A DNA stretch of 64,000 nucleotides from contig NW_027248937.1 of the NCBI RefSeq assembly GCF_036711975.1, positions 62,001 through 126,000 on the forward strand, read 5' to 3'. Under the pieces are notes generated by a model that ran no database searches, was not told where the DNA came from, and saw only the letters and a program-made list of their open reading frames with translations. Source of the stretch: Onthophagus taurus (taxonomy: Eukaryota > Arthropoda > Insecta > Coleoptera > Scarabaeidae). Position numbers and translations under genes: made by a program. Below, piece by piece: positions 3,001 through 51,108 of this stretch (its first letter is position 1; each line of letters begins with the position of its first letter).

Positions 3001-6000
3001 GATAAAAAACAAAATGTGCCCAAAACGTGATATTATGACGTTATACGCCGTTCTGAGACATGATTGAACTTTCTATCACTTTTGGTTCCGATAATTCTGT
3101 TGACCATATTTTTGATATTCAGACGCCAAATGACATCTTTGAGCATGTTGGAGATAAAAAACAAAATGTGCCCAAAACGTTATATTATGACGTTATACGC
3201 CGTTCTGAGACATGTTTGAACTTTCTATCACTTTTGGTTCCGATAATTCTGTTGACCATATTTGTGATATTCAGGCGCCAAATGACATGTTGGAGCATGT
3301 TGGAGATAAAAAACAAAATGTGCCCAAAACGTGATATTATGACGTTATACGCCGTTCTGAGACATGTTTGAACTTTCTATCACTTTTGGTTCCGATAATT
3401 CTGTTGACCATATTTGTGATATTCAGACGCCAAATGACATGCTGGAGCATGTTGGAGATAAAAAACAAAATGTGCCCAAAACGTTATATTATGACGTTAT
3501 ACGCCGTTCTGAGACATGTTTGAACTTTCTATCACTTTTGGTTCCGATAATTCTGTTGACCATATTTGTGATATTCAGGCGCCAAATGACATGTTGGAGC
3601 ATGTTGGAGATAAAAACAAAATGTGCCCAAAACGTGATATTATGACGTTATACGCCGTTCTGAGACATGTTTGAACTTTCTATCACTTTTGGTTCCGATA
3701 ATTCTGTTGACCATATTTGTGATATTCAGGCGCCAAATGACATGTTGGAGCATGTTGGAGATAAAAAACAAAATGTGCCCAAAACGTGATATTATGACAT
3801 TATACGCCGTTCTGAGACAAGTTTGAACTTTCTATCACTTTTGGTTCCGATAATTCTGTTGACCATATTTGTGCTATTCAGACGCCAAATGACATGTTGG
3901 AGCATGTTGGAGATAAAAACAAAATGTGCCCAAAACGTGATATTATGACGTTATACGCCGTTCTGAGACATGTTTGAACTTTCTATCACTTTTGGTTCCG
4001 ATAATTCTGTTGACCATATTTTTGATATTCAGACGCCAAATGACATCTTTGAGCATGTTGGAGATAAAAAACAAAATGTGCCCAAAACGTTATATTATGA
4101 CGTTATACGCCGTTCTGAGACATGTTTGAACTTTCTATCACTTTTGGTTCCGATAATTCTGTTGACCATATTTGTGATATTCAGGCGCCAAATGACATGT
4201 TGGAGCATGTTGGAGATAAAAAACAAAATGTGCCCAAAACGTTATATTATGACGTTATACGCCGTTCTGAGACATGATTGAACTTTCTATCAGTTTTGGT
4301 TCCGATAATTCTGTTGACCATATTTTTGATATTCAGACGCCAAATGACATCTTTGAGCATGTTGGAGATAAAAAACAAAATGTGCCCAAAACGTTATATT
4401 ATGACGTTATACGCCGTTCTGAGACATGTTTGAACTTTCTATCACTTTTGGTTCCGATAATTCTGTTGACCATATTTGTGATATTCAGGCGCCAAATGAC
4501 ATGTTGGAGCATGTTGGAGATAAAAAACAAAATGTGCCCAAAACGTGATATTATGACGTTATACGCCGTTCTGAGACATGTTTGAACTTTCTATCACTTT
4601 TGGTTCCGATAATTCTGTTGACCATATTTGTGATATTCAGACGCCAAATGACATGCTGGAGCATGTTGGAGATAAAAAACAAAATGTGCCCAAAACGTTA
4701 TATTATGACGTTATACGCCGTTCTGAGACATGTTTGAACTTTCTATCACTTTTGGTTCCGATAATTCTGTTGACCATATTTGTGATATTCAGACGCCAAA
4801 TGACATGCTGGAGCATGTTGGAGATAAAAAACAAAATGTGCCCAAAACGTTATATTATGACGTTATACGCCGTTCTGAGACATGTTTGAACTTTCTATCA
4901 CTTTTGGTTCCGATAATTCTGTTGACCATATTTGTGATATTCAGGCGCCAAATGACATGTTGGAGCATGTTGGAGATAAAAACAAAATGTGCCCAAAACG
5001 TGATATTATGACGTTATACGCCGTTCTGAGACATGTTTGAACTTTCTATCACTTTTGGTTCCGATAATTCTGTTGACCATATTTTTGATATTCAGACGCC
5101 AAATGACATCTTTGAGCATGTTGGAGATAAAAAACAAAATGTGCCCAAAACGTGATATTATGACGTTATACGCCGTTCTGAGACATGTTTGAACTTTCTA
5201 TCACTTTTGGTTCCTATAATTCTGTTGACCATATTTGTGATAATCAGGCGCCAAATGACATGTTGGAGCATGTTGGAGATAAAAAACAAAATGTGCGAAA
5301 AACGTTATATTATGCCGTTATACGCCGTTCTGAGACATGTTTGAACTTTCTATCACTTTTGGTTCCGATAATTCTGTTGACCATATTTGTGATATTCAGA
5401 CGCCAAATGACATCTTTGAGCATGTTGGAGATAAAAAACAAAATGTGCCCAAAACGTGATATTATGACGTTATACGCCGTTCTGAGACATGTTTGAACTT
5501 TCTATCACTTTTGGTTCCGATAATTCTGTTGACCATATTTTTGATATTCAGACGCCAAATGACATCTTTGAGCATGTTGGAGATAAAAAACAAAATGTGC
5601 CCAAAACGTTATATTATGACGTTTTACGCCGTTCTGAGACATGTTTGAACTTTCTATCACTTTTGGTTCCGATAATTCTGTTGACCATATTTGTGATATT
5701 CAGACGCCAAATGACATGCTGGAGCATGTTGGAGATAAAAAACAAAATGTGCCCAAAACGTTATATTATGACGTTATACGCCGTTCTGAGACATGTTTGA
5801 ACTTTCTATCACTTTTGGTTCCGATAATTCTGTTGACCATATTTGTGATATTCAGGCGCCAAATGACATGTTGGAGCATGTTGGAGATAAAAACAAAATG
5901 TGCCCAAAACGTGATATTATGACGTTATACGCCGTTCTGAGACATGTTTGAACTTTCTATCACTTTTGGTTCCGATAATTCTGTTGACCATATTTGTGAT

Positions 6001-6392
6001 ATTCAGACGCCAAATGACATCTTTGAGCATGTTGGAGATAAAAAACAAAATGTGCCCAAAACGTGATATTATGACGTTATACGCCGTTCTGAGACATGTT
6101 TGAACTTTCTATCACTTTTGGTTCCGATAATTCTGTTGACCATATTTGTGATATTCAGACGCCAAATGACATCTTTGAGCATGTTGGAGATAAAAAACAA
6201 AATGTGCCCAAAACGTTATATTATGACGTTATACGCCGTTCTGAGACATGTTTGAACTTTCTATCACTTTTGGTTCCGATAATTCTGTTGACCATATTTG
6301 TGATATTCAGGCGCCAAATGACATGTTGGAGCATGTTGGAGATAAAAAACAAAATGTGCCCAAAACGTGATATTATGACGTTATACGCCGTT
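1..6392 (+). repeat. 152-bp satellite array, left block
   Basis: Head-to-tail tandem copies of a 152-bp monomer; counting from GTTATACGCC at position 1, the next copy starts at 153. Copies are very similar. The main variants are AGGCGCC...ATGTTGGAGC versus AGACGCC...ATCTTTGAGC, CGTGATATT versus CGTTATATT, and loss of one A in the A-run (for example near 1335 and 3615). Because 152 is not a multiple of 3, chance reading frames of up to about two monomers recur on both strands; they are artefacts. A distinctive variant block at 1540-2000 recurs at 5185-5640, so multi-monomer segments have been duplicated. The array is cut by element A at 6392 and continues in phase after it. No gene is visible. 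Confidence 0.98.
6387..6392. other. target site duplication of element A, left copy
   Basis: GCCGTT directly before the left TIR; the same six bases directly follow the right TIR at 20589-20594. After removing the element and one copy, the 152-bp monomer reads through without a break. Six-bp duplications are typical of Polinton/Maverick integration. Confidence 0.95.
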
Positions 6393-6838
6393 AGTAGTAG
6401 ATAAAAGCCGATTCTAGAACCTCCTCTCAGAACCTCAGGTCAAGGTCAAGGCCAAGGTCACGTTGAGTGACCATGACCTTGACCTTGCCCTGAGGTTCTG
6501 GGAGGAGGTTCCAGAATCGGCTATTGCAAAGGGGGTCGTTGACCAGTAACCTAGACCTAAACAATGACCTTTACTTTGAGCTCACCTCAGGTCAAGATCA
6601 CGTTTAGTGACCATGACCTTGATCAGTAACCTTGACCTGAACAATGACCTTTACTTTGACCTCAACGGAGACCTTGAAGTCAACCTTAATTGTGACCATG
6701 ACATTGACCTTGTACGTGACCTGAAATGAAGGTTACACGACATGAGTTCATTGAAAACCCCACTTCGGAGGAGGTATGCTTTAAATAGCAGATAGAAAAT
6801 CGTGTTCAACAGTATTGAAGTAAGAGTGTTGTGAACAT
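6393..6838 (+). repeat. left terminal inverted repeat of element A
   Basis: 446 bp, matching the reverse complement of 20143-20588 at every position except one (A at 6701; the right copy has C at 20280 on the + strand). Its outer 115 bp (6407-6521) forms a subterminal imperfect palindrome with arms starting GCCGATTC. The middle is rich in AGGTCA/TGACCT. The inner end holds a TATA-like TTTAAATAG (about 6780-6788), so the TIR probably carries a promoter that fires inward from both ends. Confidence 0.97.
6437..6722. promoter_or_regulatory. cluster of AGGTCA nuclear-receptor half-sites in the TIR
   Basis: About 13 copies of AGGTCA or TGACCT lie within about 290 bp, several in the extended form TCAAGGTCA or a near variant that matches the monomeric FTZ-F1/ERR type of site. 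The right TIR has the same set, and part of it is repeated at 7691-7823. The enrichment is visible; receptor binding is inferred. Part of it comes from simple internal repetition. Confidence 0.5.
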
Positions 6839-6895
6839 AAAGAAATTGAGGAACTTGTAGCTCCTATTTTAAGCAGTTTACATCGCTTAAATATA

Positions 6896-7378
6896 ATGGC
6901 ATCGAGAAATCCAATTAAAGTCATCGATATGCAAGGGTTTACTTTATCTTCGGGATTTCGAGTTAAAGAATTGGCTATCGGTGATGGTGAGTCGATTTCC
7001 CATTTCATATTTCAACCTGATATAAGTTATGAAAGACTCAATAAGCGAGAATGTCGACAAGTGCGTTGGGAGTAGAATAACTTACACCATTTGCATTACG
7101 AGAATGGATATGTGCCCTATAATCAACTGAAAGACATTCTGGAACAGCATACATGCGGAGTGGAGGTGGTGTTTGTAAAGGGATCTCAAAAAGAAAAGGT
7201 ATTGAGAGACCTATTATCATCGGTAAAGCCAGTGATTATTAATTTACAAGATAATATATATTGCCCTTTGCTTTCGTTGAGTCAAAATTCTTGCGCATAT
7301 CATTATAAATCGGAAAGCAGTTGTGCAATTGAAAATGTTAAATTAATTTTAAAATTTTTAAAAATGGATTTAGATTAG
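6896..7378 (+). pseudogene. broken paralog of the 'D-x-Q-G-F' family gene
   Basis: From the ATG at 6896 the frame reads 59 codons, meets TAG at 7073-7075, then stays open to the stop at 7376-7378 (161 codons in all). It resembles the genes at 12902 and 53418: an N-terminal DMQGF motif (DIQGF there), then a KELAI-type segment, HFIFQP, a KGSQKEK segment, and a C-terminal C-x2-H-x6-C-x3-N-V motif. It is about as long as those genes, so the single stop looks like a recent lesion. It lies just inside the left TIR, whose inner promoter may drive it. AATAAA follows at 7398-7403. Function of the family is unknown. Element B has no copy in this position. Confidence 0.75.
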
Positions 7379-7690
7379 TGTTAAAATTTAAAATTTAAAT
7401 AAATAAATTTTTATTGTACTGACTTTTTTTTTATTCAATTTAAATGTATCACATTCCTAATCCTAATATATAAAATGGAAAAGAAAAACAACCGAATTAA
7501 ATTTCATTTAATTTATTGAACTCGTCTTTAATAAATGATAAACAATTGCATATCTTTTTAACGTATTATTTATGGTGTCAACTCGACGCCCCCGAGTTAG
7601 CAGTTCATGATGTTTTTTTTTTGGTGTACTCAAGTCGAGTGATGACTCTTCTCGGGTGTTCCCGGAGGAGTGGAGCATGACCGGGTTGGA

Positions 7691-7823
7691 TTTACTTTGA
7701 GCTCACCTCAGGTCAAGATCACGTTGAGTGACTATGACATTGATCAGTAACCTTGACCTGAACAATGACCTTTACTTTGACCTCAACGGAGAACTTGAAG
7801 TCAACCTTAATTGTGACCGTGAC
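7691..7823 (+). repeat. internal partial copy of the TIR
   Basis: About 133 bp closely match TIR positions of about 6571-6703 in direct orientation, with a few substitutions (for example GTTGAGTGACTATGACATT against GTTTAGTGACCATGACCTT). It brings several AGGTCA half-sites to just upstream of the PC4-like gene, so the early (TIR) promoter and this one share cis elements. Confidence 0.85.
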
Positions 7824-7844
7824 GTCCCCACCTAAAATGATGTG

Positions 7845-7852
7845 CATAAATA
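7845..7852 (+). promoter_or_regulatory. possible TATA box of the first + strand unit
   Basis: CATAAATA about 80 nt upstream of the 5' splice site at 7926. Element B has TATAAAT at the equivalent place (48264). Match and position are suggestive only. Confidence 0.35.
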
Positions 7853-7924
7853 GCAAGTCAGGTTCATAAAAGATTAGTTTCATTGAAATCATCCGACGTA
7901 GTGGTGACATAACAACGCAGAACA

Positions 7925-8859
7925 AGTAAGTCCATAAACACTTGTCTTACAGCAGAAGTATTAATGTTATATATACTTAGTGGGTTCCAGACAACAATAT
8001 ATAAAAGCACCGAAGAGAAGTCTCGAGGTTCAACAGGCGGTATCCAAAAAAGCGAGCATAAGTCCAAAGGTGATAAAACCCTCGTTGACACCCGTGGCAT
8101 CTGAAGAGGTGTTAAAACAAGAAAAGTTTAATACAGTTATAGAGTGTGGTAACAATATGCAAGCGGTCGCTGATGGAAAAGATTCGTTTGCAGACTTAAG
8201 CCCTTTTATTATGACGCAAAGTGTTAACGGTAATAATGAAGTAGTTTCGAGAATAGATAACATGGAGAGCTTAACCAACATGTCGGACAGTACAGTAAGA
8301 GCAAGTAGAGGTCCTCTATTTTCGGAAACAGTGTATGCACTAAATAAGAGCCGCACGAAATGTGTGGCAATAGGATTAAGTGCTGACTTACATTTTGAAC
8401 CAGTGGTAAGGTTAATGGGAAAAGGTCAATGATTGGCACAACATTATTATGTATAAGTCAACAATCACAAACAGTTTTGCTAATCAGTCTCCGTCGCAGA
8501 TAGTGTTGTGTGGTGTCAGTATATCGTGCGATTGGATGGAAAACGTTTGCAAGATTTTAAAGTTGGAGAGGGGTGGAGAATATGTATATATTGCATATGA
8601 ATCGTTGCATGAGCTTTGGAACGTAGCAGATTTAGTAGCAACTCGACTGAAATTATTGAGAACTGTGAATTACAAAGCATATTATGATAGTGTTATAAAC
8701 GCGTTAGCTGCACGGGATGGAGATGTGAAACGTAATATGTTAACGATGCTCAATGAATCGTGTTCTGAACAAATATGTATAAGTAAGGAAGTGATGTTGT
8801 ACAATTTCGATAAAATCTTGTTGGATGTAGATTTGTTTAAATTATTTCACAATCAATAA
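7925..8859 (+). pseudogene. broken PC4-like gene (start codon split by an intron)
   Basis: Homolog of the intact gene at 48399-49363. The start codon is A at 7925 joined to TG at 7981-7982 across the intron 7926-7980. The frame runs to TGA at 8430-8432. The downstream half continues in another frame from about 8449 to 8859. Compared with B, 40 nt replace 60 nt between the conserved GKGQ and NSF segments, so a net 20-nt loss causes both the stop and the frameshift. The break falls in the segment that in B resembles the PC4 ssDNA-binding fold. Both halves are otherwise well conserved (for example LNKSRTK, SLHELW, YYDSV), so the damage is limited to this lesion. Confidence 0.8.
7926..7980 (+). 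other. intron splitting the start codon of the PC4-like gene
   Basis: 55 nt, donor GTAAGT, acceptor TACTTAG. Splicing joins ...CAA to TGGGTT... and thereby makes the only suitable ATG. The unspliced frame has only GTG here. The same arrangement in element B (48400-48464) supports it. Confidence 0.75.
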
Positions 8860-8863
8860 AGAC

Positions 8864-9088
8864 ATGGGTAAGGTGCGGATTGATGAGAGTAAAAATGAGA
8901 TGCATAGAATGTATGCATGGACTTATGCGTATAGACAATCACGAAAGTGTAATTGGGAGGAAATGTATTTAGATCGTCTTAGATTTAAGAATAGAATAAG
9001 TTATGTAAATGATATGTTACACCTGTACTTAAGCAGCGAATTTAGAAATAAGATTTTTCATGAAAGATTTAAATATGTAATGACTTAA
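8864..9088 (+). CDS. small conserved element protein (74 aa)
   Basis: ATG at 8864, four nt after the stop of the broken PC4-like gene. Counterpart of the gene at 49374 in element B. Shared features are an acidic/basic start with an ESKN motif, then a W-T-x-A-Y-R-Q-S-R segment, a W-E-E-x2-L-D motif, R-F-K-x-R-I and Q/H-E-R-F near the end. It is basic, has no signal peptide or membrane segment, and no domain was recognised. Conservation between two diverged elements, and the same tight spacing to the gene before it, make it a real gene. The close spacing suggests translation from the same mRNA. Function unknown. Confidence 0.8.
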   Translation: MGKVRIDESKNEMHRMYAWTYAYRQSRKCNWEEMYLDRLRFKNRISYVNDMLHLYLSSEFRNKIFHERFKYVMT

Positions 9089-9094
9089 AATAAA
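9089..9094 (+). terminator. polyadenylation signal
   Basis: AATAAA directly after the stop at 9086-9088, with a second overlapping copy and a T-rich stretch. It probably ends the first + strand transcript. Confidence 0.6.
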
Positions 9095-9202
9095 TAAAAA
9101 TTTTTTTCAAATGTGAGCGTATTATTAACCATCCAATATTCACCGAATAATGTGCGAAAGCTATTAAATATAATGGTATGAATGTTAGGACAGTGAAACA
9201 GT

Positions 9203-10105
9203 ATGCATCGATCAAGCAAACGGTCTGGTCGAGGTATTGTGAATACATTAATCAATAAGCTTCCGATAGAACTACATTTGCCAGGTTATAATTATTGCGG
9301 TCCGGGAACCAAATTGGTAAAGAGATTAGTTCGTGGAGATCAGGGAGTGAATAAATTAGACGACGCCTGTAAAACGCATGATATTGCCTACGCAGCGACA
9401 TCGAATTTAGCTGAGCGACACATAGCCGATAAAGAGTTGTATAAGACGGCGAAAGAGCGGTTGAGAAGTAAAGACGCAAGCTTAGGAGAGCGACTATCGT
9501 CGACGTTAGTGTCAACGATAATGAAAGGAAAAACAATAATGGGTATGGGAATGCAAATTCGTGCCCTAAGACGTAGAGGGACAACTCGTCAGAAGTTGAA
9601 ACGTGGCGGTAAGTTGTCGTTTACGCAGGCAATGAACTTAGTGCGGCGAGCGATTGCACAGACCAACAGTACGAATACAAAGGGAGATGTACAAGTGGGT
9701 TACAATCTGTTGAAACCTTATCAAGGTAGAATACTTAAACCGCGCGGAAAAATAATCAAGATTCCCAAGACGGGAGGTTTTTTACCCTTAATACTTGCAG
9801 CTTTGGGTGCTCTCGGTTCTTTAGGCGGAGGTGCAGCAGCTATTGCAAAAACCGTAAACGAAGCAAAAATAGCAAGGGAGCAGTTACAAGAAGCCCAACG
9901 TCACAATCGGGCTATGGAACCAAAAGCGATCGGCAGCGGTTTGTATATTAAACCATATAAGCAAGGTTGCGGACTAGTCATGAAAACGGTATCACGAAAA
10001 TCAAAGCGACTAAAACGCCCCAAGAGGGCGAACAAAATTGGTACAGGAATGTTTATTAATCCATATAAAAAGGGTTGTGGTTATAAAACTGTAGCAAAAA
10101 ACTAA
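9203..10105 (+). CDS. PLA2-domain minor virion protein (300 aa)
   Basis: The N-terminal third has a phospholipase A2 core of the parvovirus VP1u type: a calcium-loop motif LPGYNYCGPG (about residues 26-35) and the catalytic HD pair in THDIAY (H59, D60). A basic linker follows, then a glycine/alanine-rich hydrophobic stretch beginning PKTGGFLPLI (about residues 190-215), a charged helix with REQLQEAQRHN, and two C-terminal repeats of the form G-x-G-x-x-x-x-P-Y-K-x-G-C-G. In related viruses the PLA2 domain helps breach host membranes during entry; the hydrophobic tail is reminiscent of adenovirus pVI-like lytic segments, which is inference. ATG 9203 is the first in frame. The gene ends in the frameshift heptamer at 10096. 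Confidence 0.9.
   Translation: MHRSSKRSGRGIVNTLINKLPIELHLPGYNYCGPGTKLVKRLVRGDQGVNKLDDACKTHDIAYAATSNLAERHIADKELYKTAKERLRSKDASLGERLSSTLVSTIMKGKTIMGMGMQIRALRRRGTTRQKLKRGGKLSFTQAMNLVRRAIAQTNSTNTKGDVQVGYNLLKPYQGRILKPRGKIIKIPKTGGFLPLILAALGALGSLGGGAAAIAKTVNEAKIAREQLQEAQRHNRAMEPKAIGSGLYIKPYKQGCGLVMKTVSRKSKRLKRPKRANKIGTGMFINPYKKGCGYKTVAKN
10096..10102 (+). promoter_or_regulatory. predicted -1 ribosomal frameshift site
   Basis: Heptamer A_AAA_AAC in the correct phase (zero-frame codons AAA, AAC), directly followed by the PLA2 stop TAA at 10103. After a one-base slip the frame is open from 10102 into the protease. A possible 7-bp stem-loop (one G-U pair), CTTTAAC (10124-10130) with GTTAAGG (10140-10146), lies downstream with a rather long spacer. 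Element B has the same heptamer at 50722-50728. Confidence 0.75.
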
Positions 10106-10494
10106 TAAAAATACCCCAACATTCTTTAACGGATGTAGAGTTAAGGCGATATGCACGAGCGCTTGATCTGTTAAACTTTCGTGGGGTGTACATGAGAAAC
10201 AATTTACCGAAGAAAATCCGAAAACGAGAGAGTGGGATAATAAATCTTGATAATCGTACGGGTCCCGGTACTCACTGGACAGCTTACAACAAGGATGGTG
10301 TAAATGTTAACTACTTTGACAGTTATGGAGATTTACGACCACCGATTGAAGTGGAGAAGTATTTTATATCGGATGGGGGGAGAAATATTGTGAGGTATAA
10401 TTATCGACGATATCAAAAAGAAGATCAAACAAATTGTGGACAATTGTGTCTGCATTTCTTAGATAGTTTAAATACCAAGGAAGTATCCGTGTAA
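10102..10494 (+). CDS. adenain-like cysteine protease, expressed by -1 frameshift
   Basis: Peptidase family C5-type core. The catalytic His is in GTHW, the acidic residue in YFDSYGD, and the Cys in TNCGQLCL, in the adenovirus protease order. The protease cleaves virion precursor proteins during maturation in related viruses. The first in-frame ATG (10192) lies at an internal MRNNLP, but the frame is open and conserved with element B for 30 codons before it, back to the PLA2 stop: 18 of 36 aligned residues are identical, including V-E-L and F-R-G. There is no ATG in that stretch, so I start the frame at the slip site 10102. Expression from the internal ATG cannot be excluded. Confidence 0.85.
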   Translation, partial: LIKIPQHSLTDVELRRYARALDLLNFRGVYMRNNLPKKIRKRESGIINLDNRTGPGTHWTAYNKDGVNVNYFDSYGDLRPPIEVEKYFISDGGRNIVRYNYRRYQKEDQTNCGQLCLHFLDSLNTKEVSV

Positions 10495-10514
10495 GATTAG
10501 TCTTGAGAACAACA

Positions 10515-11258
10515 ATGGAACAAGATACAATACATACAAGTTATACATTTACGCTCACCGGAAGGGGGTCGGAGTTGTCTTGTAACTTTAACCCACCGAT
10601 TTATTTGAATGAACTCGGTACATACGAGTTAGCTCTTTTAAATTTCGAAACGTTCAATACGTTACCTAATATCGATTCAACAAACAATATTTTACAATAT
10701 GAAGATCATATGGGAAATTTTACAGAGAATATTGAAATACCGCTAGGAACATACGATATTAACGATATTAACGAATACGTTAAAAAAACATTAACAGCGA
10801 GGAATATTCTCAGCGTGACTACACCGGGTACACAGATACGCATAAGAGGTAATAATAATACGCAACCTGCTGAGATAAAAACAAACCGGCGAATAAATTT
10901 TGCTAGCGATAATTCAATCGGTTCCTTACTTGGTTTTAACCCTAAAGTTATACCTAAAAACACGATAACAGAATCGGATCATATCGTGAATATAAATAAA
11001 ACGAATGCATTACAAATTTATTGTAATTTGAGCTCCGGATCGTATACGAATGGACAACCCATGCACGTGTTGTATCATTTCTTCCCGAACGTACCGGCTG
11101 GTTTTAAAATAATAGAAGCTCCGCAACAACCGATTTACTTACCTGTTACAACGAACGTGATTAGTACATTAATAGTACGCATACTTGATCAGGACGGTCA
11201 GTTGGTAAACTTCAGAGACGAAGAAGTGACCGTGAGAGTGCACTTGAAATCGGTGTGA
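10515..11258 (+). CDS. penton-like minor capsid protein (single jelly-roll)
   Basis: 247 aa from the ATG at 10515; an upstream TTG is not a likely start. It is very similar throughout to 51139-51870. It is predicted to be rich in beta strands. Recognisable segments include GTYDINDI, SIGSLLGF, HVLYHFFP and a C-terminal DQDG...VNFRDEE...VRVHL, as in the minor capsid (penton) proteins of arthropod Polintons/adintoviruses. In the virion it would occupy the five-fold vertices. It sits 20 nt after the protease and 17 nt before the next gene, inside the structural cluster. The assignment rests on family resemblance and position. Confidence 0.8.
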   Translation: MEQDTIHTSYTFTLTGRGSELSCNFNPPIYLNELGTYELALLNFETFNTLPNIDSTNNILQYEDHMGNFTENIEIPLGTYDINDINEYVKKTLTARNILSVTTPGTQIRIRGNNNTQPAEIKTNRRINFASDNSIGSLLGFNPKVIPKNTITESDHIVNINKTNALQIYCNLSSGSYTNGQPMHVLYHFFPNVPAGFKIIEAPQQPIYLPVTTNVISTLIVRILDQDGQLVNFRDEEVTVRVHLKSV

Positions 11259-11275
11259 GTAGTAGGGTATTTAAT

Positions 11276-11446
11276 ATGGGTATAGTGTACGACGTTCGAA
11301 GAAAAGCACAGGAAAATCTGGGTGATAGAGTAATGTATAAAACGGTACGAAAGGATGTAAAACCTAACAGTAAGCGAAAATCAACTACCCAGTTAACACG
11401 CGTCAATCGTCAGTATTTAAGCAACTTAGGTTTTCAACTACTATAA
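11276..11446 (+). CDS. small basic protein between penton and MCP genes (56 aa)
   Basis: ATG 11276, stop directly followed by the MCP ATG (TAA-ATG). It is strongly basic with a conserved C-terminus of the form L-T/S-x-V-N-R-x-Y-L-x-x-L-G-F/Y, shared with 51894-52085 in element B. No domain is known to me. Size, charge and position suggest a small virion or DNA-binding protein (inference). The N-terminal half is less conserved. Confidence 0.7.
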   Translation: MGIVYDVRRKAQENLGDRVMYKTVRKDVKPNSKRKSTTQLTRVNRQYLSNLGFQLL

Positions 11447-12709
11447 ATGGAGTCCTTAAACGTCACGGAGAAAATAAAAGTAGATAACTCGATTGTAAGT
11501 TACGAATATCATTCCCATCAACCGTTTGGTTCTACTAGCTTCGGTAACAATGATGAAATTCGTATAGGCATACCCGAAATAGACAATTACACATTGCCTC
11601 ATGAAAGTTTTTTGTATGTGGAAGGGAGCGTACGTAAACTGGATGCGAGTGGTAAAGCAACAAAAGATGCTAGTGCAACTGCAAAATTGATAAATAATCC
11701 TGTAGCGTTTATGTTCAGTGATATTCGCTATCTTATAAATGGTGTTCAAATAGATGGAGTGAGAAACGTGGGGTTAACATCATGTATGAAAGGATACTTT
11801 TCGTATACCCCTCACGATATAATAAAGTTGGCGAACGCAGGTTGGAACATGGGCGAGGATCTGCTAGGTCAAGTGGTCCCAACATCCCCTGTAACGGATG
11901 CAATAATGGATAAAAATGGAAATTTTGGATTGAGTGTACCGCTAAAGACATTAATAGGGTTTGCTGAAGATTTTAAAACAATTGTGATGAATGTGAGACA
12001 AGAGCTAGTGTTAATTCGTAATAATGATGATAATGATGTGCTTGTGAATACGGTAGAAGAACCGTTACAGTTAAAAATCGATAAAGTTGTGTGGAGAATG
12101 CCCCATCTAGCCGTAGGCTTACGAGAACAATTAGCTCTAACAAAAATAGCAGGACGAAATATTGATCTGCAAATACCTTTTCGCAGTTGGGAAGTACATG
12201 AATATCCTTCCTTACCTCAAACAACAAAGCATTCATGGGCTGTGAAAACAGCTCCGCAGTTGGAAACACCTAGATTTATAATAATTGGGTTTCAAACAAA
12301 GAAGAAAGGAAAACAGTTGGCGAACATGGCAACCTTTGATAATGTAAAACTCACCAATTTGACGGTATTCCTAAACGGTGAACGCTACCCATACGATAAT
12401 CTGAACGTGGACTTTGATAGTAATCGTGTCGCAGTGTTATATGACATGTATACACGCTTTCAAAAGTCCTACTATGGGAAGGAAGGAGAACCATTACTCA
12501 CTCCGAAACAATTTATTGAAAATTATCCACTGATTGGAATTGATTGTACATATCAAGCAGAAGCGCTACACAAAAGTGGGGTAGAAATACGGATAGAATT
12601 TACGACAAAAAATCCGATTCCTGATGGTACCACAGCATACTGTTTAGTTTTACATGATAAGGCGTTTCAATATTCTCCACTAACAAAAATCGTCAAACAA
12701 ATGACTTGA
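11447..12709 (+). CDS. major capsid protein, double jelly-roll (hexon-like)
   Basis: 420 aa, intact, matching 52085-53344 (419 aa) along its whole length. Conserved blocks include HSHQPFGS near the N-terminus, NNDEIRI, IPEIDNYTLP, a VNNPVAFMF-type segment with FSDIRYLINGV, a CMKGYFS segment, AGW, LREQLALTK, FRSWEVHEYP and TPRFIIIGFQT. This pattern is that of the Polinton/adintovirus MCP, which forms trimeric capsomers of an icosahedral particle. The ATG is fixed by contact with the preceding stop. The shared length argues that element A's capsid gene is still under or only recently freed from selection. Confidence 0.9.
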   Translation: MESLNVTEKIKVDNSIVSYEYHSHQPFGSTSFGNNDEIRIGIPEIDNYTLPHESFLYVEGSVRKLDASGKATKDASATAKLINNPVAFMFSDIRYLINGVQIDGVRNVGLTSCMKGYFSYTPHDIIKLANAGWNMGEDLLGQVVPTSPVTDAIMDKNGNFGLSVPLKTLIGFAEDFKTIVMNVRQELVLIRNNDDNDVLVNTVEEPLQLKIDKVVWRMPHLAVGLREQLALTKIAGRNIDLQIPFRSWEVHEYPSLPQTTKHSWAVKTAPQLETPRFIIIGFQTKKKGKQLANMATFDNVKLTNLTVFLNGERYPYDNLNVDFDSNRVAVLYDMYTRFQKSYYGKEGEPLLTPKQFIENYPLIGIDCTYQAEALHKSGVEIRIEFTTKNPIPDGTTAYCLVLHDKAFQYSPLTKIVKQMT

Positions 12710-12901
12710 GTATGGGGAAAGAAGGGTTGGTAGTGTGTAGTTGGATCGGATCCTGAGCCGCATCGCACCCGTAGCTCATCATCCGAAATGTGAGACTTCT
12801 ATATTCAGCGTAAACAAAAAAAAGTCGTAGAGTATAAGTTGTGCGACAGATTTCTACGGCTGCATAGTACGACGTTGTACGTTGTATGGATAATCGTGTT
12901 G

Positions 12902-13417
12902 ATGTACGGAAGCAAGATGTATTCAAATAAAACTCAATACATAATTCTCGATATACAAGGTTTCATGGTCAACGAAGATCAGTTCGTACCTAAAGAATTA
13001 GCATCATGTGATAGTAACAAATGCATAACCCACCACGTTTTTCAACCGAGTAGCAGTATAGCTTCATTACCATCTAAATATAGGAATACTGCAAACTGGT
13101 TAATGACACATCATCATTGCATCGACTGGAAAGTTGGTTTTATCCATCCAATGGAATTCGACGCCATAGTCAAATATCTGTGTCGGAATGTCAAGAAAGT
13201 GTATGTTAAAGGACCTGAAAAAATTAAATTTTTAAGACATATTATTTCCGCGCCGATATTTGCGTTGGAAGGTAGTATCTATAAACTTGAGATGGGTATA
13301 CCGAGCTGTGCTTTTCACTCGCGACGAAGAAGTATGTGTGCTCTTTCCAATGTACGCCACTTACAAGAAGTTGTCGAAGAGGGGGTGCAAAACAAGGATG
13401 CGAAAGACAGTCGGTGA
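12902..13417 (+). CDS. 'D-I-Q-G-F' family protein of unknown function
   Basis: 172 aa from the ATG at 12902; an ATG at 12917 is also possible, and both lie before the conserved start of the family. Related to 53418-53897 and to the pseudogene at 6896. Conserved: ILDIQGF near the N-terminus, PKELAS, HVFQPS, a N-W-L-M-x-H-H-H-C-I-D-W block, VKGPEK, and a C-terminal C-x2-H-x6-C-x3-N-V motif that could bind a metal. No known domain was recognised; the early Asp and Cys/His residues would fit a nuclease-like fold, but that is speculation. It lies downstream of the MCP gene with about 190 bp between. Confidence 0.75.
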   Translation: MYGSKMYSNKTQYIILDIQGFMVNEDQFVPKELASCDSNKCITHHVFQPSSSIASLPSKYRNTANWLMTHHHCIDWKVGFIHPMEFDAIVKYLCRNVKKVYVKGPEKIKFLRHIISAPIFALEGSIYKLEMGIPSCAFHSRRRSMCALSNVRHLQEVVEEGVQNKDAKDSR

Positions 13418-13467
13418 CTATAAAGCAGAGACAAGTCGTAATGGGGGATAGTTAAGAGCTGGTTGCG

Positions 13468-13803
13468 ATGGAACAAGTGTTCACTGTGTTTGGGTGTTGG
13501 CCACTTACATCTGCCAAGAAAGTGTACAGCGTAATGAAAAAATATGAACAAGATGCCTCATTTGCGAACATTCCAGCTCGTGATTTAAAATATTTACCAA
13601 CACAGTATTATTTCGATAAAGTACCATCTATGGAATTACGAAGAATTTGGACCCAACTACCGTTCGCCTACCAGCAATCGAAAATGTTACAAATGAAGTT
13701 ACCGTGTCTTGAACATTATAATAATGATTGTGCGGAAACTCATTTCGATGGACCACCACCACCTAAAATGCATTGTATTAAATGTACGTTAGAAAAGAAA
13801 TAA
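13468..13803 (+). CDS. small protein with a C-terminal Cys/His motif (111 aa)
   Basis: ATG 13468. Counterpart of 53954-54286. Conserved features are a YE-x-D-x-SFANI segment, Y-L-P-x-x-Y-Y, a W-x-x-L-P segment, and a C-terminal L-P-C-x-E-H-Y-N ... T-H-x-D-G-P-P ... C-x2-C pattern that looks like a zinc site. Function unknown; it is the last gene of the structural cluster in both elements. Confidence 0.75.
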   Translation: MEQVFTVFGCWPLTSAKKVYSVMKKYEQDASFANIPARDLKYLPTQYYFDKVPSMELRRIWTQLPFAYQQSKMLQMKLPCLEHYNNDCAETHFDGPPPPKMHCIKCTLEKK

Positions 13804-13804
13804 A
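13799..13804 (+). terminator. polyadenylation signal of the structural cluster
   Basis: AATAAA overlapping the stop codon of the preceding gene. No other AATAAA was noted between 9203 and here, consistent with one long polycistronic transcript. Confidence 0.5.
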
Positions 13805-13925
13805 TGTTATTTTTTTATCCATATTGATGAGTTTTATTTAAAGAAACCTCTTCACCTCCCCTTCCCCCTCCCCCTCCCCCCTCCCCTCCCCCTGTTTTTC
13901 CGACCACGAAGAAATCGCTTTCTGC

Positions 13926-14207
13926 TAGAAAACCATTTGAAAAGTAAGTTACATCAATACAATTTTTATCGGTTTTCTTCATGTATGTTTGTGATGATTT
14001 CAGGTATTAATTGTTATACGCTGAGAAAAGTGGTTCTTCAGCGCATTGCAAACCTGTCAGACGTGATAGAAAACCATTTGAAAAGTAAGTTACATCAATA
14101 CAATTTTTATCGGTTTTCTTCATGTATGTTTATGATGATTTCAGACATTAATTGTTATACGCTGAGAAAAGTGGTTCTTCAGCGCATTGCAAACTTGTCA
14201 GACGTGA
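13926..14207 (+). repeat. tandemly duplicated mini-exon/intron leader
   Basis: Two 141-bp direct copies with few differences. Each has a donor AAAGTAAGTT and, 60 nt on, an acceptor ending GATTTCAG. Predicted introns are 13944-14003 and 14085-14144 (60 nt each), enclosing an 81-nt exon 14004-14084 without ATG; both introns contain ATGs. After splicing, the first ATG would be that of the gene at 14280. A C-rich pyrimidine tract (about 13852-13893) lies upstream. The layout parallels the mini-exon leader of element B. Confidence 0.7.
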
Positions 14208-14279
14208 GCGAACGTATAATTTTAATAAAATAATCCAAATTTTTTGTAACCCTTTTGATTCCTTGAAGTCTTTCCCATT

Positions 14280-15176
14280 ATGCTTCACTTAATTGGTAAC
14301 AGCCACGCTCGTGCAAGCGATAATACCGATGGTATGACCGACCCACTGGTTGCCGTGCTGCCACGCAATAACGACAGTACGAATGTTGTTGAGTCAAGCC
14401 TACCGTCGTTACCATTATATTGCAGCGGCAACTTTGACGGTTTGAGTCGTACCATGCAGGATTTCACTACAGACCCACCACTGTACGAGCAAATAATGAA
14501 TGAGCTCCGGTCACAGCCAGGGAACGACAATGGTGCGATTGTTACCACCAGTCCAACCTTGTCGTCCTACGGCTTAACTCGCATCAGTATGGAGATACGA
14601 GAAGAAGGAACATATCAGGAAGTTGTTGTGCCACCTGAACCTGCTACCGATCAGGCCGACGTGGTACAACCACTTCCAGATATTGTACATACGGATGTCA
14701 CAAGTCAAGCACCTGCTGAAAACCAGGTGCTTGCGGCACCGTCTGTACCAGCGACGGAAGACGTATCCCAACCCTCCGATAGGATATGTGTTTCGCCTGT
14801 CTTCTCGAGTGGACCCATACGGTACACATCCCGCCGTATAAAAAAACGCGTCAACTTGTTGTCAAGGGGTTGCGTGAAACAAACTACCCGCCCAAACCCT
14901 TCTCCTGCTTCACAAGACTCCTGTAGATTGCTGCGCAACGCATTAGCCAAACCTCCCCGTAACACACGAAGAGTACCTACACTCGCTACAGTAACCAGAC
15001 CTGCAACGGTGGTTACATCTCCACCAGAGGTGACCATCGACATCCGTGACAGCCCGCCAACTATCACAACTATCCCACCACAAAATGTGGTGTTCCCACC
15101 ACCTTTACCTATCCGCTCCAGGGAGTCCAACTCAAACGCGGAGATACCATTAAGTGTAAAAATAATGCACCGATAG
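14280..15176 (+). CDS. accessory protein with PPxY motif (298 aa), 3' end altered by deletion
   Basis: ATG 14280 is the first ATG after the leader. The protein is rich in Pro, Thr, Ser and Val, apparently disordered, with a PPLY late-domain-type motif (residues 66-69), a basic RRIKKR patch in the middle and a PPPLP stretch near the end. Its base composition is richer in G+C than the AT-rich genes around it. I see no clear similarity to the 325-aa gene in the same place in element B, so this locus looks like a variable accessory slot. The last dozen or so codons read, in another frame, the remnant of the lost 141-aa gene, so the true C-terminus was probably different. Function unknown. Confidence 0.6.
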   Translation: MLHLIGNSHARASDNTDGMTDPLVAVLPRNNDSTNVVESSLPSLPLYCSGNFDGLSRTMQDFTTDPPLYEQIMNELRSQPGNDNGAIVTTSPTLSSYGLTRISMEIREEGTYQEVVVPPEPATDQADVVQPLPDIVHTDVTSQAPAENQVLAAPSVPATEDVSQPSDRICVSPVFSSGPIRYTSRRIKKRVNLLSRGCVKQTTRPNPSPASQDSCRLLRNALAKPPRNTRRVPTLATVTRPATVVTSPPEVTIDIRDSPPTITTIPPQNVVFPPPLPIRSRESNSNAEIPLSVKIMHR

Positions 15177-15226
15177 GAGGACTACCTTTTCTTATAGAGT
15201 TGTTGATTGAAGGGGTTGTAGAGTAA
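15140..15226 (+). pseudogene. 3' remnant of the 141-aa gene
   Basis: About 28 codons ending at TAA 15224-15226 correspond to the C-terminus of the gene at 58974-59399: a G-D-x-I-x-C-K start, then P-F-x-x-E-L-L-I-E. Upstream similarity stops at about 15135. Everything between the accessory gene and this point, including the ATPase, the 387-aa gene and the start of this gene, has been lost in element A. The stop overlaps the integrase ATG as TAATG. Confidence 0.8.
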
Positions 15227-16161: not shown

Positions 16162-16186
16162 TTTTTACACTAAGAAAATAAAAAAC

Positions 16187-16192
16187 TTTTTT
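16187..16192 (+). terminator. polyadenylation signal after the integrase
   Basis: AATAAA 26 nt after the integrase stop, followed by a T-rich stretch. Confidence 0.6.
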
Positions 16193-16205
16193 TAATTTCG
16201 TTGAT

Positions 16206-16211
16206 TTTATT
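16206..16211 (-). terminator. polyadenylation signal for polB (minus strand)
   Basis: TTTATT on the + strand, i.e. AATAAA on the - strand, about 110 nt past the polB stop. The two convergent transcripts would overlap slightly. A run of about 22 T (16277-16298) lies between. Confidence 0.45.
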
Positions 16212-16322
16212 TCAAGTAACCTTTTTAACAACCTACTTTCTACTTTATATACAAGTTTTGTGATACAAGCAAGTATTTTTTTTTTTTTTTTTTTTTTTAC
16301 AAATTAACTGATCGCAATTTAA

Positions 16323-19300: not shown

Positions 19301-20144
19301 GTTTCCCTATAATCTGGGTATGATGATATTCTTTGCGGTAAACCTGTGGGTTGGTACAGTGCGGACATCAGTGCCCAAGCAAAGCACTTATTATCGTTAT
19401 TTTGCACGTTTATTACCGCTCTCTTCCCTTTTATGGATGTCGGTAAGTCGATGTAGCTCGATGCTCTTGTAGGATTAAACTTGTTACAGTTCACTTCAAG
19501 ATATAATATTTCCAACAAGGTCCAACCTGCAGTATTAACACCTTTAGTTTCGCATTTTACTACTTTTCTATTCTTATACTCTTACCTGAGTCCCGTTCTT
19601 GGAATTCCGACATTTTCACCATAATCTCGTCCATAAAGTCCTCGTATGTTTGGTATAAGTCTACGGCTACTGTTATAATTTTATTTTTTGTGTTGAATGA
19701 TTTGATTTCCACTTCTTCCTTCGTATTTATGAAATACAATCCAAAAATTTCCGTATTCACTTTTAAACTACCATTTACATTCCTCACGGACTGTATCAAA
19801 CTGATAACTTTTTTTCTAATTCGGTTACTGAATTCCTTCATGTCTACGTACTTCCGCTCATGATCGCTCACTCTAAAACTACATATTTTATCTCCAAATA
19901 TCGAATCTATTTTTTCTACACCATCATCTATTATTACGAAGGCTTTCTGTTTATGTTTGTTGCTACGCAGATGTGAGGAATAACATTGTCTGGTTACGTG
20001 TTCATCACATATTTCACACACTATAACATCTCCTTGTTGATCCTCTTCCACCTTTCGACGTTTCCCAATACATGCTGTGCGTTGATGTCTCACAAGATTA
20101 TCTGGTCTAGTAAACTCTTTGTAACACACGTCGCAGGTCAACAT
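16323..20144 (-). pseudogene. polB: protein-primed family B DNA polymerase, two exons, frameshifted
   Basis: Exon 1 is 20144-19586, exon 2 is 19526-16323. Exon 1 begins inside the last two bases of the right TIR and has two zinc-finger-like motifs (C-x2-C ... H-x4-C; C-x2-C ... H-x5-H). Exon 2 carries the exonuclease motifs (ADFEA, NLSNYD, YLTSDV...DVFE) and polymerase motifs A (DATNLYG), B (NNIVYGK) and C (YTDTDS). An 11-nt deletion at about 18453, within a CDHDHLTG zinc/HNH-like segment and relative to element B, shifts the frame. The upstream part then stops at 18418 and the downstream part is open from 18410. The polymerase is therefore split between exo motifs I and II and is expected to be non-functional. 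A single lesion was found. Confidence 0.9.
19527..19585 (-). other. intron in polB of element A
   Basis: 59 nt on the minus strand, donor CAG|GTAAG, acceptor ATACTGCAG. Removing it joins ...ERDSG to WTLL... in frame. Element B has an intron at the same codon and phase, and the joined segment matches between the two. Confidence 0.9.
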
Positions 20145-20588
20145 GTTCACAACACTCTTACTTCAATACTGTTGAACACGATTTTCTATCTGCTATTTAA
20201 AGCATACCTCCTCCGAAGTGGGGTTTTCAATGAACTCATGTCGTGTAACCTTCATTTCAGGTCACGTACAAGGTCAATGCCATGGTCACAATTAAGGTTG
20301 ACTTCAAGGTCTCCGTTGAGGTCAAAGTAAAGGTCATTGTTCAGGTCAAGGTTACTGATCAAGGTCATGGTCACTAAACGTGATCTTGACCTGAGGTGAG
20401 CTCAAAGTAAAGGTCATTGTTTAGGTCTAGGTTACTGGTCAACGACCCCCTTTGCAATAGCCGATTCTGGAACCTCCTCCCAGAACCTCAGGGCAAGGTC
20501 AAGGTCATGGTCACTCAACGTGACCTTGGCCTTGACCTTGACCTGAGGTTCTGAGAGGAGGTTCTAGAATCGGCTTTTATCTACTACT
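20143..20588 (-). repeat. right terminal inverted repeat of element A
   Basis: Reverse complement of 6393-6838 with one mismatch. On the minus strand it provides the TATA-like box, leader and the start region of polB. Confidence 0.97.
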
Positions 20589-20594
20589 GCCGTT
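20589..20594. other. target site duplication of element A, right copy
   Basis: GCCGTT, identical to 6387-6392; the satellite monomer resumes directly with CTGAGACATG. Confidence 0.95.
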
Positions 20595-47200: not shown

Positions 47201-47400
47201 AATGTGCCCAAAACGTTATATTATGACGTTATACGCCGTTCTGAGACATGTTTGAACTTTCTGTCACTTTTGGTTCCGATAATTCTGTTGACCATATTTG
47301 TGATATTCAGACGCCAAATGACATCTTTGAGCATGTTGGAGATAAAAAACAAAATGTGCCCAAAACGTGATATTATGACGTTATACGCCGTTCTGAGACA
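32263..47400 (+). repeat. higher-order repeat region of the satellite
   Basis: Marker variants recur at whole-monomer spacings: 32263, 34239 (1976 bp, 13 monomers); 33479, 35455 (1976), 37127 (1672, 11 monomers); 38343, 40319 (1976), 42447 (2128, 14 monomers); 41472, 43600 (2128), 45272 (1672). Copies of a block are nearly identical while monomers within a block differ, the definition of higher-order repeats made by recent unequal exchange. Confidence 0.8.
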
Positions 47401-49813: not shown

Positions 49814-50731
49814 ATGAATTTGTTAGAACCTAATCGTAACAGTTATCGTTTGACAGGCAAACGAATTGGTCGAGGATTTTTTAACAAGTTGATAGATAAA
49901 CTTCCGATAGAACTTCATTTGCCAGGATATAATTTTTGTGGACCGGGTACCAAGTTGGAAAAGAGATTATCGAGAGGAGATCGAGGCGTGAATCCATTAG
50001 ACGAAGCGTGTAAGAAACACGATATAGCATATACGGTCAGTTCAAATTTAAAATTTAGACACGACGCAGACAGAGCATTATATAAAGCAGCGAAAGAACG
50101 AATACGAAATAAAGAGTCTACTCTTGGAGAAAAAGTGGCATCGTCCGCAGTTGCCGCCTTAATGAAAACAAAAGTAGCGGTCGGTATGGGCGTAGGTAGA
50201 AAAAGAAATCGTACGGGTCGACGACCTTTAAAAAAAGTCCGAACGCGTGTAAAGCGTGGTGGAGCTATATCTTTTGTAGATGCACTTCGATTCGCTCGCA
50301 ACGCAATATCGAGATCAGGTGCTAAGAATTTGTTGACAAACGTTAAAGCGGCGTACGGAGCTTTGAAAAAGATAAGAAAAAGAATTTCCGAACCTAGAGG
50401 TCGAGTTATTCGAATTCCGAAAACGGGAGGATTTTTACCTTTAATTCCCCTGTTCGCAGCTTTAGGTGCTCTAGGTAGTATCGGCGGTGGTGCTGCCGCT
50501 ATTGCAAGAACTATAAACAACGCGAAAACAGCTAGAGAGCAATTAGATGAAGAACGAAGACATAACAAGGCTATGGAAGCAAAGGCCGTAGGTAGCGGAT
50601 TTTATATAAAACCATATAAGAAAGGTTGCGGTTTGTTTATTGAAGGAAAGGGGAATAATGTTGGCGGCACAGGTTACTTCAATAAGCCCTATAAGAAAGG
50701 TTGCGGTATAACCACTAGTTCAAAAAACTAG
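49814..50731 (+). CDS. PLA2-domain minor virion protein (305 aa)
   Basis: Same design as the element A protein. Calcium loop LPGYNFCGPG (about residues 36-45), the HD catalytic pair in KKHDIAY (H69, D70), a basic region (KKVRTRVKRGG), a Gly/Ala-rich hydrophobic segment after PKTGGFLPLI (about residues 203-230), a helix REQLDEERRHN, and two C-terminal G-x-x-x-x-K-P-Y-K-K-G-C-G repeats. By analogy with parvovirus VP1 the domain would act on endosomal membrane during entry; the rest would be a capsid-internal or lytic part. All key residues are present. The last codons are the frameshift heptamer. Confidence 0.92.
   Translation: MNLLEPNRNSYRLTGKRIGRGFFNKLIDKLPIELHLPGYNFCGPGTKLEKRLSRGDRGVNPLDEACKKHDIAYTVSSNLKFRHDADRALYKAAKERIRNKESTLGEKVASSAVAALMKTKVAVGMGVGRKRNRTGRRPLKKVRTRVKRGGAISFVDALRFARNAISRSGAKNLLTNVKAAYGALKKIRKRISEPRGRVIRIPKTGGFLPLIPLFAALGALGSIGGGAAAIARTINNAKTAREQLDEERRHNKAMEAKAVGSGFYIKPYKKGCGLFIEGKGNNVGGTGYFNKPYKKGCGITTSSKN
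50722..50728 (+). promoter_or_regulatory. predicted -1 ribosomal frameshift site
   Basis: A_AAA_AAC in phase with the PLA2 frame, directly followed by TAG at 50729. The -1 frame is open from 50728 through the protease. A weak bulged stem (CTCG...CGTT, loop AACT, AACG.CGAG, about 50741-50766) follows after about 12 nt. Same site as 10096-10102. Confidence 0.78.
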
Positions 50732-51108
50732 TTCGAATACCTCGTCGTGCGTTAACTAACGTCGAGTTGGAAAAGTTTGCGAAAGTACTAAAAATTCCAC
50801 ATTTTCGGGGTATATTTATGAGAGACAATCTCCCGAGTAAGATTAAAAAGAAGGAAAGAGGTATTGTTAACTTGGATAACTTGAAAGGACGAGGGACTCA
50901 TTGGGTCGCCTATAAGAAAGACGACAAGGACATATACTATTTTGACAGTTACGGTGATTTAAGACCGCCATTAGAAATTGAACAATATTTGCTGTCAGAC
51001 GGTAGGGGTGGTCAAGTAAAGTATAATTACTGTCGATATCAAAGAGAAATAGATCAAAATTGCGGACAGTTGTGTCTGAAGTTTCTAAGTAATAAAAGAA
51101 CCTATTAG
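50728..51108 (+). CDS. adenain-like cysteine protease, expressed by -1 frameshift
   Basis: C5-type triad: His in GTHWVAY, Asp in YFDSYGD, Cys in QNCGQLCL. Frame is open from the slip site; the first ATG is internal, at MRDNLP (50818-50820). The 30 codons between slip site and this ATG are conserved with element A, which would not be expected if translation began at the ATG. It would mature the capsid precursors. Intact. Confidence 0.88.
   Translation, partial: LVRIPRRALTNVELEKFAKVLKIPHFRGIFMRDNLPSKIKKKERGIVNLDNLKGRGTHWVAYKKDDKDIYYFDSYGDLRPPLEIEQYLLSDGRGGQVKYNYCRYQREIDQNCGQLCLKFLSNKRTY

What the first reader, a model, noticed from the sequence alone, without database searches (positions are those of the whole stretch)
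10094..10195. Conserved -1 frameshift signal fuses the PLA2 virion protein to the adenain protease (element A)
The PLA2 gene ends A_AAA_AAC then TAA. The heptamer is the canonical X_XXY_YYZ slippery form in the right phase. The -1 frame has no stop from 10102 into the protease, and no ATG until an internal position 30 codons later. Those 30 codons are conserved with element B (18 of 36 residues around and before the ATG identical), so they are translated. A Gag-Pro-like strategy would put a low dose of protease inside the virion as a fusion to a minor capsid protein. I know of no description of this for Polintons or adintoviruses.
Basis: partly seen in the sequence, partly recalled or inferred. 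Interest (0 to 1): 0.88.

Follow-up and report, generated by a model that had tools for sequence, protein, structure and literature searches.

The report
Frameshift signal fusing Polinton PLA2 to protease
A virus-like jumping element in a dung beetle carries, at the end of its phospholipase-type capsid gene, a signal that should make some ribosomes slip back one base and add the capsid-maturation protease to that protein, as retroviruses do, and signs of the same signal recur in many related beetle elements.

Summary
Ten carry an in-phase slippery heptamer: A_AAA_AAC in eight, U_UUU_UUA in two. The eleventh (L045) has none but an ATG overlapping the PLA2 stop. Of the 120 listed PLA2 relatives, 108 have K-N, the mark of that heptamer, in the last nine residues, always after a residue with an NNA codon. 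A distant virus contig has the same arrangement. In A a strong stem begins 8 nt downstream (z -3.4); B has an 8-bp stem at the same spacing; other types show none. The "extension" is the first helix and strand of an adenain fold, so the internal ATG cannot start a complete enzyme. Best reading: programmed -1 frameshifting makes a PLA2-protease fusion. Many relatives have a called start just after the heptamer position, so reinitiation may add to or replace frameshifting there. Nothing was measured. A 2024 preprint suggested frameshifting for adintovirus Penton and Hexon-Adenain, not PLA2.

The parts
9203..10105 (+). Element A PLA2-type virion protein, 300 aa, ends ...KN*
   Evidence: Pfam Phospholip_A2_4 1.5e-14; NCBI Onthophagus taurus protein P0126 99% identical
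10096..10102 (+). Slippery heptamer A_AAA_AAC in the PLA2 frame, followed at once by UAA
10102..10494 (+). -1 frame protease, 130 aa plus stop; no ATG before residue 31
10102..10191 (+). 30-codon extension: holds helix 11-20 and most of strand 26-31 of the protease model
10192..10194 (+). First in-frame ATG; its Met is residue 31, the end of the first strand, and is nearly invariant as a residue in relatives
10111..10118 (+). 5' arm of outer 8-bp stem, 8 nt after the heptamer
10182..10189 (+). 3' arm of outer stem
10125..10134 (+). 5' arm of inner 10-bp stem (3' arm 10166-10175)
6393..6838 (.). Left terminal inverted repeat of element A
   Evidence: 446 nt, 100% complementary to 20143-20588
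20143..20588 (.). Right terminal inverted repeat of element A
49814..50731 (+). Element B PLA2-type protein, ends ...KN*
   Evidence: Pfam Phospholip_A2_4 1.1e-12
50722..50728 (+). Element B heptamer A_AAA_AAC, followed by UAG
50719..51108 (+). Element B -1 frame holding the protease (open frame with its stop)
50737..50744 (+). Element B 5' arm of outer 8-bp stem, 8 nt after heptamer (3' arm 50806-50813)
   Evidence: whole-fold z about 0

Best explanation
Ribosomes reading the PLA2 gene of element A mostly stop at the UAA after A_AAA_AAC and make the 300-aa PLA2 protein. A minority slip back one base on the heptamer, helped in A (and perhaps B) by a stem 8 nt downstream, and read on in the -1 frame, making a PLA2-protease fusion of about 430 aa. 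Shown by sequence: heptamer, phase, overlap, missing start codon, recurrence of these in other families, and that the extension belongs to the protease fold. Inferred: that slippage happens, that the fusion carries the protease into the capsid with a minor capsid protein, and that the protease then frees itself.
For: 10 of 11 junction types in the genome (my grouping) carry an in-phase heptamer, A_AAA_AAC in eight and U_UUU_UUA in two; 22 of 30 distinct junction sequences do. 108 of the 120 listed PLA2 relatives have K-N in the last 9 residues, where the rate elsewhere predicts about 3.4; the residue before it has an NNA codon in 108 of 108, against 91 of 115 K-N pairs elsewhere. Distant IMG/VR contig L109 has A_AAA_AAC in phase and no ATG before the FRGVFM motif. 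Stem in A z -3.4, 0 of 200 shuffles; best helix at spacer 5-9: A 0 of 500 shuffles, B P 0.026, both spacer 8, spans 79 and 77. In C/F/G/H synonymous divergence is lowest right after the heptamer: pS 0.405 in the first 26 codons, 0.738 in the rest, lowest of 102 windows, permutation P 0.0012. Extension = first helix and strand; adenovirus protease residue 1 aligns with model residue 7.
Against: No clear structure downstream in C, C', C'', F, G, H, E, E' and no H-type pseudoknot in the 7 families tested. B's whole fold is no better than shuffles. The U_UUU_UUA of E could be chance: at the rate some in-phase heptamer falls in a 21-codon overlap about 15% of the time. In 60 of the 118 listed protease relatives with a recognised core the called start lies 6-8 residues before it, i.e. 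after the heptamer position, so many may have their own start codon. P0017, 84% identical to A's protease, has its called start at the codon where A has ATA (my alignment). 12 of 120 PLA2 tails lack the K-N mark. No RNA or protein data.
Confidence: 0.8

Rival explanations
1. Termination-reinitiation or own start: ribosomes end PLA2 and restart at a start codon overlapping or just after the stop; in A a non-AUG codon would have to serve, because AUG was lost.
For: L045 has no heptamer but an ATG overlapping the PLA2 stop as ATGA. 60 of 118 listed proteases with a recognised core start 6-8 residues before it. Two pairs allow an NTG start overlapping the stop (P0132/P0012, P0177/P0081). P0017 starts where A has ATA (my alignment).
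Against: A, B, C, C', C'', F, G and H have no ATG in the extension. It does not explain the fixed phase of the heptamer, its presence in tails of lineages with possible starts, or the stem 8 nt downstream in A and B. That the gene callers also use GTG/TTG (so a printed M need not be ATG) is recalled; one listed start is printed as V (P0020).
Confidence: 0.08
2. RNA polymerase slippage on the A run adds one A to some mRNAs, which also shifts reading to the protease frame.
For: Runs of A or T at every heptamer; L109 has 11 A, L083 has 9 (CAA AAA AAA AAC).
Against: A and B have only six A. Slippage needs no codon phase, yet the run is in phase wherever the K-N mark is found: 108 of 108 are preceded by an NNA-codon residue.
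Confidence: 0.04
3. The extension is joined by splicing to a start codon elsewhere.
For: One NCBI model (P0127) is named isoform X1, so alternative transcripts are predicted there.
Against: No split is needed for the PLA2 or protease ORF in A or B; intact vertebrate Mavericks are described as having intronless ORFs (PMC8097293, passage); splicing explains neither heptamer nor phase. Not tested with transcripts.
Confidence: 0.02
4. In A the protease is simply a decayed gene that lost its start; the heptamer is a leftover.
For: The polymerase region of this copy lies in three ORFs; A has ATA where a close relative has its called start.
Against: The protease frame is intact with the columns that are invariant in 73 relatives; B and six further A_AAA_AAC types are in the same state; 59 genome places share A's exact junction.
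Confidence: 0.05

Closest known systems
Retroviral Gag-Pro / Gag-Pol -1 frameshifting (recalled; A_AAA_AAC is named among the most slippery heptamers for mammalian ribosomes in PMC5009743, passages read)
   Same: In-phase X_XXY_YYZ heptamer at the end of a structural gene, protease in the -1 frame without its own start, stem at 8 nt in A and B
   Different: A dsDNA element; adenain-type cysteine protease, not an aspartic protease (recalled); partner is a PLA2/pVI-like minor protein, not the main shell protein; most families here lack a clear stimulatory structure
Hypothesised frameshifting in adintovirus Penton and Hexon-Adenain 'Hexain' (PMC11071296, section 16 read)
   Same: Adintovirus-like elements, -1 frameshift, adenain as a possible fusion partner
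   Different: There a short passage on KnotInFrame predictions for Penton and, in one sentence, Hexon-Adenain; here PLA2-adenain, with conservation, phase and alternative-start tests
Adenovirus adenain with its pVI-derived cofactor (recalled; structures 4wx4, 1nln, 1avp)
   Same: Protease fold, His and Cys positions; virion maturation role by homology
   Different: Adenovirus protease is separately translated and brought in by DNA and cofactor (recalled); here it would arrive as a fusion
Vertebrate Mavericks (PMC8097293, section 7 and passages read)
   Same: Adenoviral-like protease, integrase, capsid proteins and ATPase in one element
   Different: Protease listed as its own gene in the capsid module; no frameshifting mentioned in the passages read (its two uses of the word are mutations)

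Membership tests
Programmed -1 ribosomal frameshift signal | X_XXY_YYZ heptamer in the upstream frame | tested here: met
   A, B and 8 more junction types
Programmed -1 ribosomal frameshift signal | Overlapping -1 ORF that lacks its own start | tested here: met
   A, B, C, C', C'', F, G, H: no ATG before the FRG motif; E/E' have an ATG inside the extension in some copies; L045 has its own ATG
Programmed -1 ribosomal frameshift signal | Stimulatory structure 5-9 nt downstream | tested here: met
   Met for A: spacer 8, z -3.4. B: same spacer, P 0.026, but whole fold z about 0. Not found in C, C', C'', F, G, H, E, E'
Programmed -1 ribosomal frameshift signal | Measured frameshift product | not testable with these tools
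   No RNA or protein data held
Adenain (peptidase family C5) | Fold | tested here: met
Adenain (peptidase family C5) | Sequence profile PF00770 | tested here: inconclusive
   25 of the 73 members of A5 match at E<=0.05, best 2.3e-5; 19 match Peptidase_C48; element A alone matches no family
Adenain (peptidase family C5) | Catalytic His and Cys | tested here: met
   THW and NCG line up with adenain's HW and CG; His 58 and Cys 112 of A are invariant in A5; which residues are catalytic is recalled
Polinton/Maverick (adintovirus-like) element | Terminal inverted repeats | tested here: met
   A: 446 nt, 100%; B not tested
Polinton/Maverick (adintovirus-like) element | rve integrase, double jelly-roll capsid protein, A32-type ATPase | tested here: met
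   rve in A and B, chromodomain in B just below cutoff, DJR in A 4.8e-105, Pox_A32 in B; DJR not tested in B, ATPase not sought in A
Polinton/Maverick (adintovirus-like) element | Protein-primed PolB | tested here: inconclusive
   B's 1053-aa ORF matched only Endonuclease_7 and A's 695-aa ORF nothing in Pfam at 1e-3; the PolB name is recalled

The most novel reading that the evidence does not exclude
Minus-one frameshifting is the ancestral, conserved way in which beetle Polintons (and at least one distant polinton-like virus) attach the maturation protease to a minor capsid protein. Its K-N scar is visible in about 90% of the listed PLA2 tails; lineages swap heptamers (A_AAA_AAC to U_UUU_UUA) or trade the heptamer for a start codon overlapping the stop. 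It would be a Gag-Pro logic evolved in a dsDNA virus lineage.
Probability: 0.55. Interest if true: 0.88.

Novelty: new variant of a known kind. Interest (0 to 1): 0.8.

Why it matters
It would be a conserved, structural-gene use of -1 frameshifting in a eukaryotic dsDNA virus-like element, with the same logic as retroviral Gag-Pro. It gives a concrete prediction about how a Polinton particle acquires its protease, which bears on the open question whether these elements form virions. It also means that gene callers may misplace the protease start and miss the fusion in many beetle Polintons, and it offers natural comparisons (heptamer versus own ATG) that make the mechanism directly testable with a reporter.

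Tried and rejected
Tried without result: viral-contig scans with PLA2 alignment A3 and protease alignment A4 gave no relatives; a scan with L109's protease returned only the same contig; genome-contig scan with A4 none. H-type pseudoknot search by my own script found none in 7 families. RNAalifold on C/C''/F/G/H gave no stem in the first 80 nt. My first folding pass used 75-nt windows and missed the outer stem of A, because its 3' arm lies beyond; more than 50 window folds were run in all, so z -3.4 for A should be read with that in mind. PHROGs gave nothing for three proteins.

Considered and rejected: stop-codon readthrough (the protease is not in the PLA2 frame); start at the internal ATG 10192 (it would remove the first helix and strand); a function of K-N as a protein tail only (the codons are AAA and AAC with NNA before in all eight A_AAA_AAC types, where the shares in A and B genes are 0.72, 0.39 and 0.34; those types are not independent).

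Dropped rows: of 108 loci of this genome, 106 gave a junction row and L057 and L106 none; several loci are the same place fetched twice. The 106 rows are 30 distinct junction sequences; 22 of them (96 rows) carry A_AAA_AAC or U_UUU_UUA in phase. The other 8: L045/L059 (own ATG), L056/L061 (one-frame copy), and L044, L055, L058, L060, L085, L104, broken near the junction. Of these six, L044, L055, L058 and L104 still hold the heptamer letters and L060 and L085 do not. Families seen only as hits (five places) could not be fetched.

Full report
1. What is there. The window is G000:C12:62001-126000 of a 290.8-Mb genome. Its PLA2 protein is 99% identical to an NCBI protein of Onthophagus taurus whose contig has the same length as C11, so the host is taken to be that dung beetle. 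Element A lies between perfect 446-nt inverted repeats, 6393-20588, and holds an rve integrase and a double jelly-roll capsid protein. The PLA2 gene (PF08398) ends with A_AAA_AAC UAA at 10096-10105. The protease frame is -1, has no ATG for 30 codons, and ends at 10494.

2. It recurs in the genome. Element B has the same heptamer, phase and frame relation. Protein searches of the genome with B's protease, L045's protease and P0053 each scored 150 of 261-265 candidates, so counts are lower bounds. I compared 108 loci, grouping them by eye into 11 junction types. A_AAA_AAC in phase: A, B, C (L046), C' (L089), C'' (L083), F (L053), G (L095), H (L091-L094, L096 and others). U_UUU_UUA in phase, 46-55 nt before the PLA2 stop: E (L048, L049, L052 and others) and E' (L097, L098, L102). 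None: L045, where the protease has an ATG five codons before the LTD motif that overlaps the PLA2 stop as ATGA. The types are related, so these are not 11 independent events; C, C' and C'' are close variants, and A/B, C/F/G/H and E/E' are three groups. In H and E' triplet repeats (AAG 3-5, AAC 4-5 copies) vary in number within the overlap and so keep both frames. The E-type upstream ORF lacks the PLA2 domain and keeps only the pVI-like second half.

3. It recurs elsewhere, seen through proteins. No DNA of other insects could be fetched, so I used protein tails. Of the 120 listed PLA2 relatives (1,328 passed the threshold among 8,000 scored), 108 have K-N in the last nine residues; the K-N rate elsewhere in the same proteins predicts about 3.4. 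A residue without an NNA codon never precedes it (0 of 108), against 24 of 115 elsewhere. After crude clustering, 31 of 36 representatives have it. Ten of the 120 carry an organism name, from six genera (Onthophagus, Anoplophora, Popillia, Aquatica, Pyrocoelia, Molorchus), all beetles (recalled). Of 50 listed protease relatives whose called start is 12 or more residues before the LTN core, 27 have K-K exactly 11 residues before it, the -1 reading of the heptamer. For nine PLA2/protease pairs with equal contig length (pairing is an inference), five have overlaps of 13-15 codons that force A_AAA_AA(C/T); one (P0181/P0041) forces a sequence without a heptamer and puts a called NTG start about nine codons before the PLA2 end; three are uninformative about the heptamer. 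For each pair a formal solution with no overlap also exists; I prefer the long overlaps because both frames fit over 9-15 codons. One called start of the upstream type is printed as V (P0020), so that start is probably not an ATG.

4. It recurs far away. The one IMG/VR contig found, L109 (19.4 kb), has a different pVI-like ORF (my description; no family search was made) whose end reads ...AAA AAA AAA AAC CCA GAG TTT TAA, with the protease in -1 and no ATG before FRGVFM. Its run of 11 A also permits polymerase slippage.

6. Downstream RNA. In A the 95 nt from 10107 fold to -28.7 kcal/mol (z -3.4; 0 of 200 shuffles), with an 8-bp outer stem that starts 8 nt after the heptamer. B can form an 8-bp stem with the same spacer and nearly the same span (79 and 77 nt); compared by place in the stem, three pairs differ and are kept, one of them changed on both sides, but the 3' arms lie 2 nt apart in the alignment and B's whole fold is ordinary. 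C, C', C'', F, G, H, E and E' show nothing clear. In C/F/G/H, however, silent sites are most conserved right after the heptamer (pS 0.405 against 0.738; P 0.0012; four sequences) and less so in the PLA2 tail (0.71, falling to 0.51 in the last 15-codon window). This suggests an RNA-level constraint whose nature I could not find.

7. Mechanism. Frameshifting explains phase, heptamer choice, missing start, conserved extension and, in A and B, the stem. Own-start translation explains L045 and perhaps much of the database: of the 120 listed proteases (5,673 passed the threshold), 118 have a recognised core and 60 of these have a called start 6-8 residues before it, at or just past the expected PLA2 stop. 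Because tails with K-N dominate the PLA2 list as well, heptamer and start codon probably coexist in many lineages, giving fusion and free protease; this could not be proved without DNA. All 120 PLA2 tails carry a G-x-G-hydrophobic motif within 60 residues of the end, but so do 199 of 378 other 60-aa segments, so I do not lean on it; that such a site is cleaved is recalled analogy with adenain.

8. In print. Searches: adintovirus+frameshift, 11 papers, of which I opened passages of three; Polinton/ribosomal frameshift/protease, 1,542 papers with two of the terms, 20 listed; adenain/frameshift/capsid protease; Maverick/Polinton/programmed ribosomal frameshifting, none of the 20 listed holding the last term; polinton+slippery sequence, one paper; polinton with minor capsid, protease, fusion protein and frameshift, two papers; Onthophagus taurus+Polinton, one paper, listing only. 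Of the papers I opened, only PMC11071296 discusses the subject: possible -1 frameshifting at the end of adintovirus Penton, and 'a similar relationship' for Hexon-Adenain. The founding adintovirus paper (PMC8502044) is not held, and most subscription papers are not covered, so absence is weak evidence.

Noticed in passing
window 16323-20150 (-): Element A's polymerase region lies in three ORFs in different frames, while B has one 1053-aa ORF; yet 59 places in the genome share A's exact PLA2/protease junction.
   Followed up: no
window about 5915-6439, 20555-22000, 45851-47400: Arrays of an approximately 152-bp satellite repeat lie beside element A on both sides and upstream of element B.
   Followed up: no
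L056 / L061 (G000:C2:29164888-29166459): A B copy in which most of PLA2 and the protease lie in one 378-aa frame; database ORFs P0113, P0124 and P0125 are also one-frame PLA2-type/protease proteins.
   Followed up: partly
L085 and window 50713-50735: In B the heptamer sits between two direct copies of ACTAGTTC; in copy L085 only one copy is left and the heptamer is gone.
   Followed up: no
L091-L094, L096, L097-L099, L102 and others: Triplet microsatellites (AAG, AAC) of varying copy number inside the PLA2/protease overlap, always in whole triplets.
   Followed up: partly
L074, L077, L086 upstream of the junction: E-type elements encode a pVI-like protein without the PLA2 domain.
   Followed up: partly
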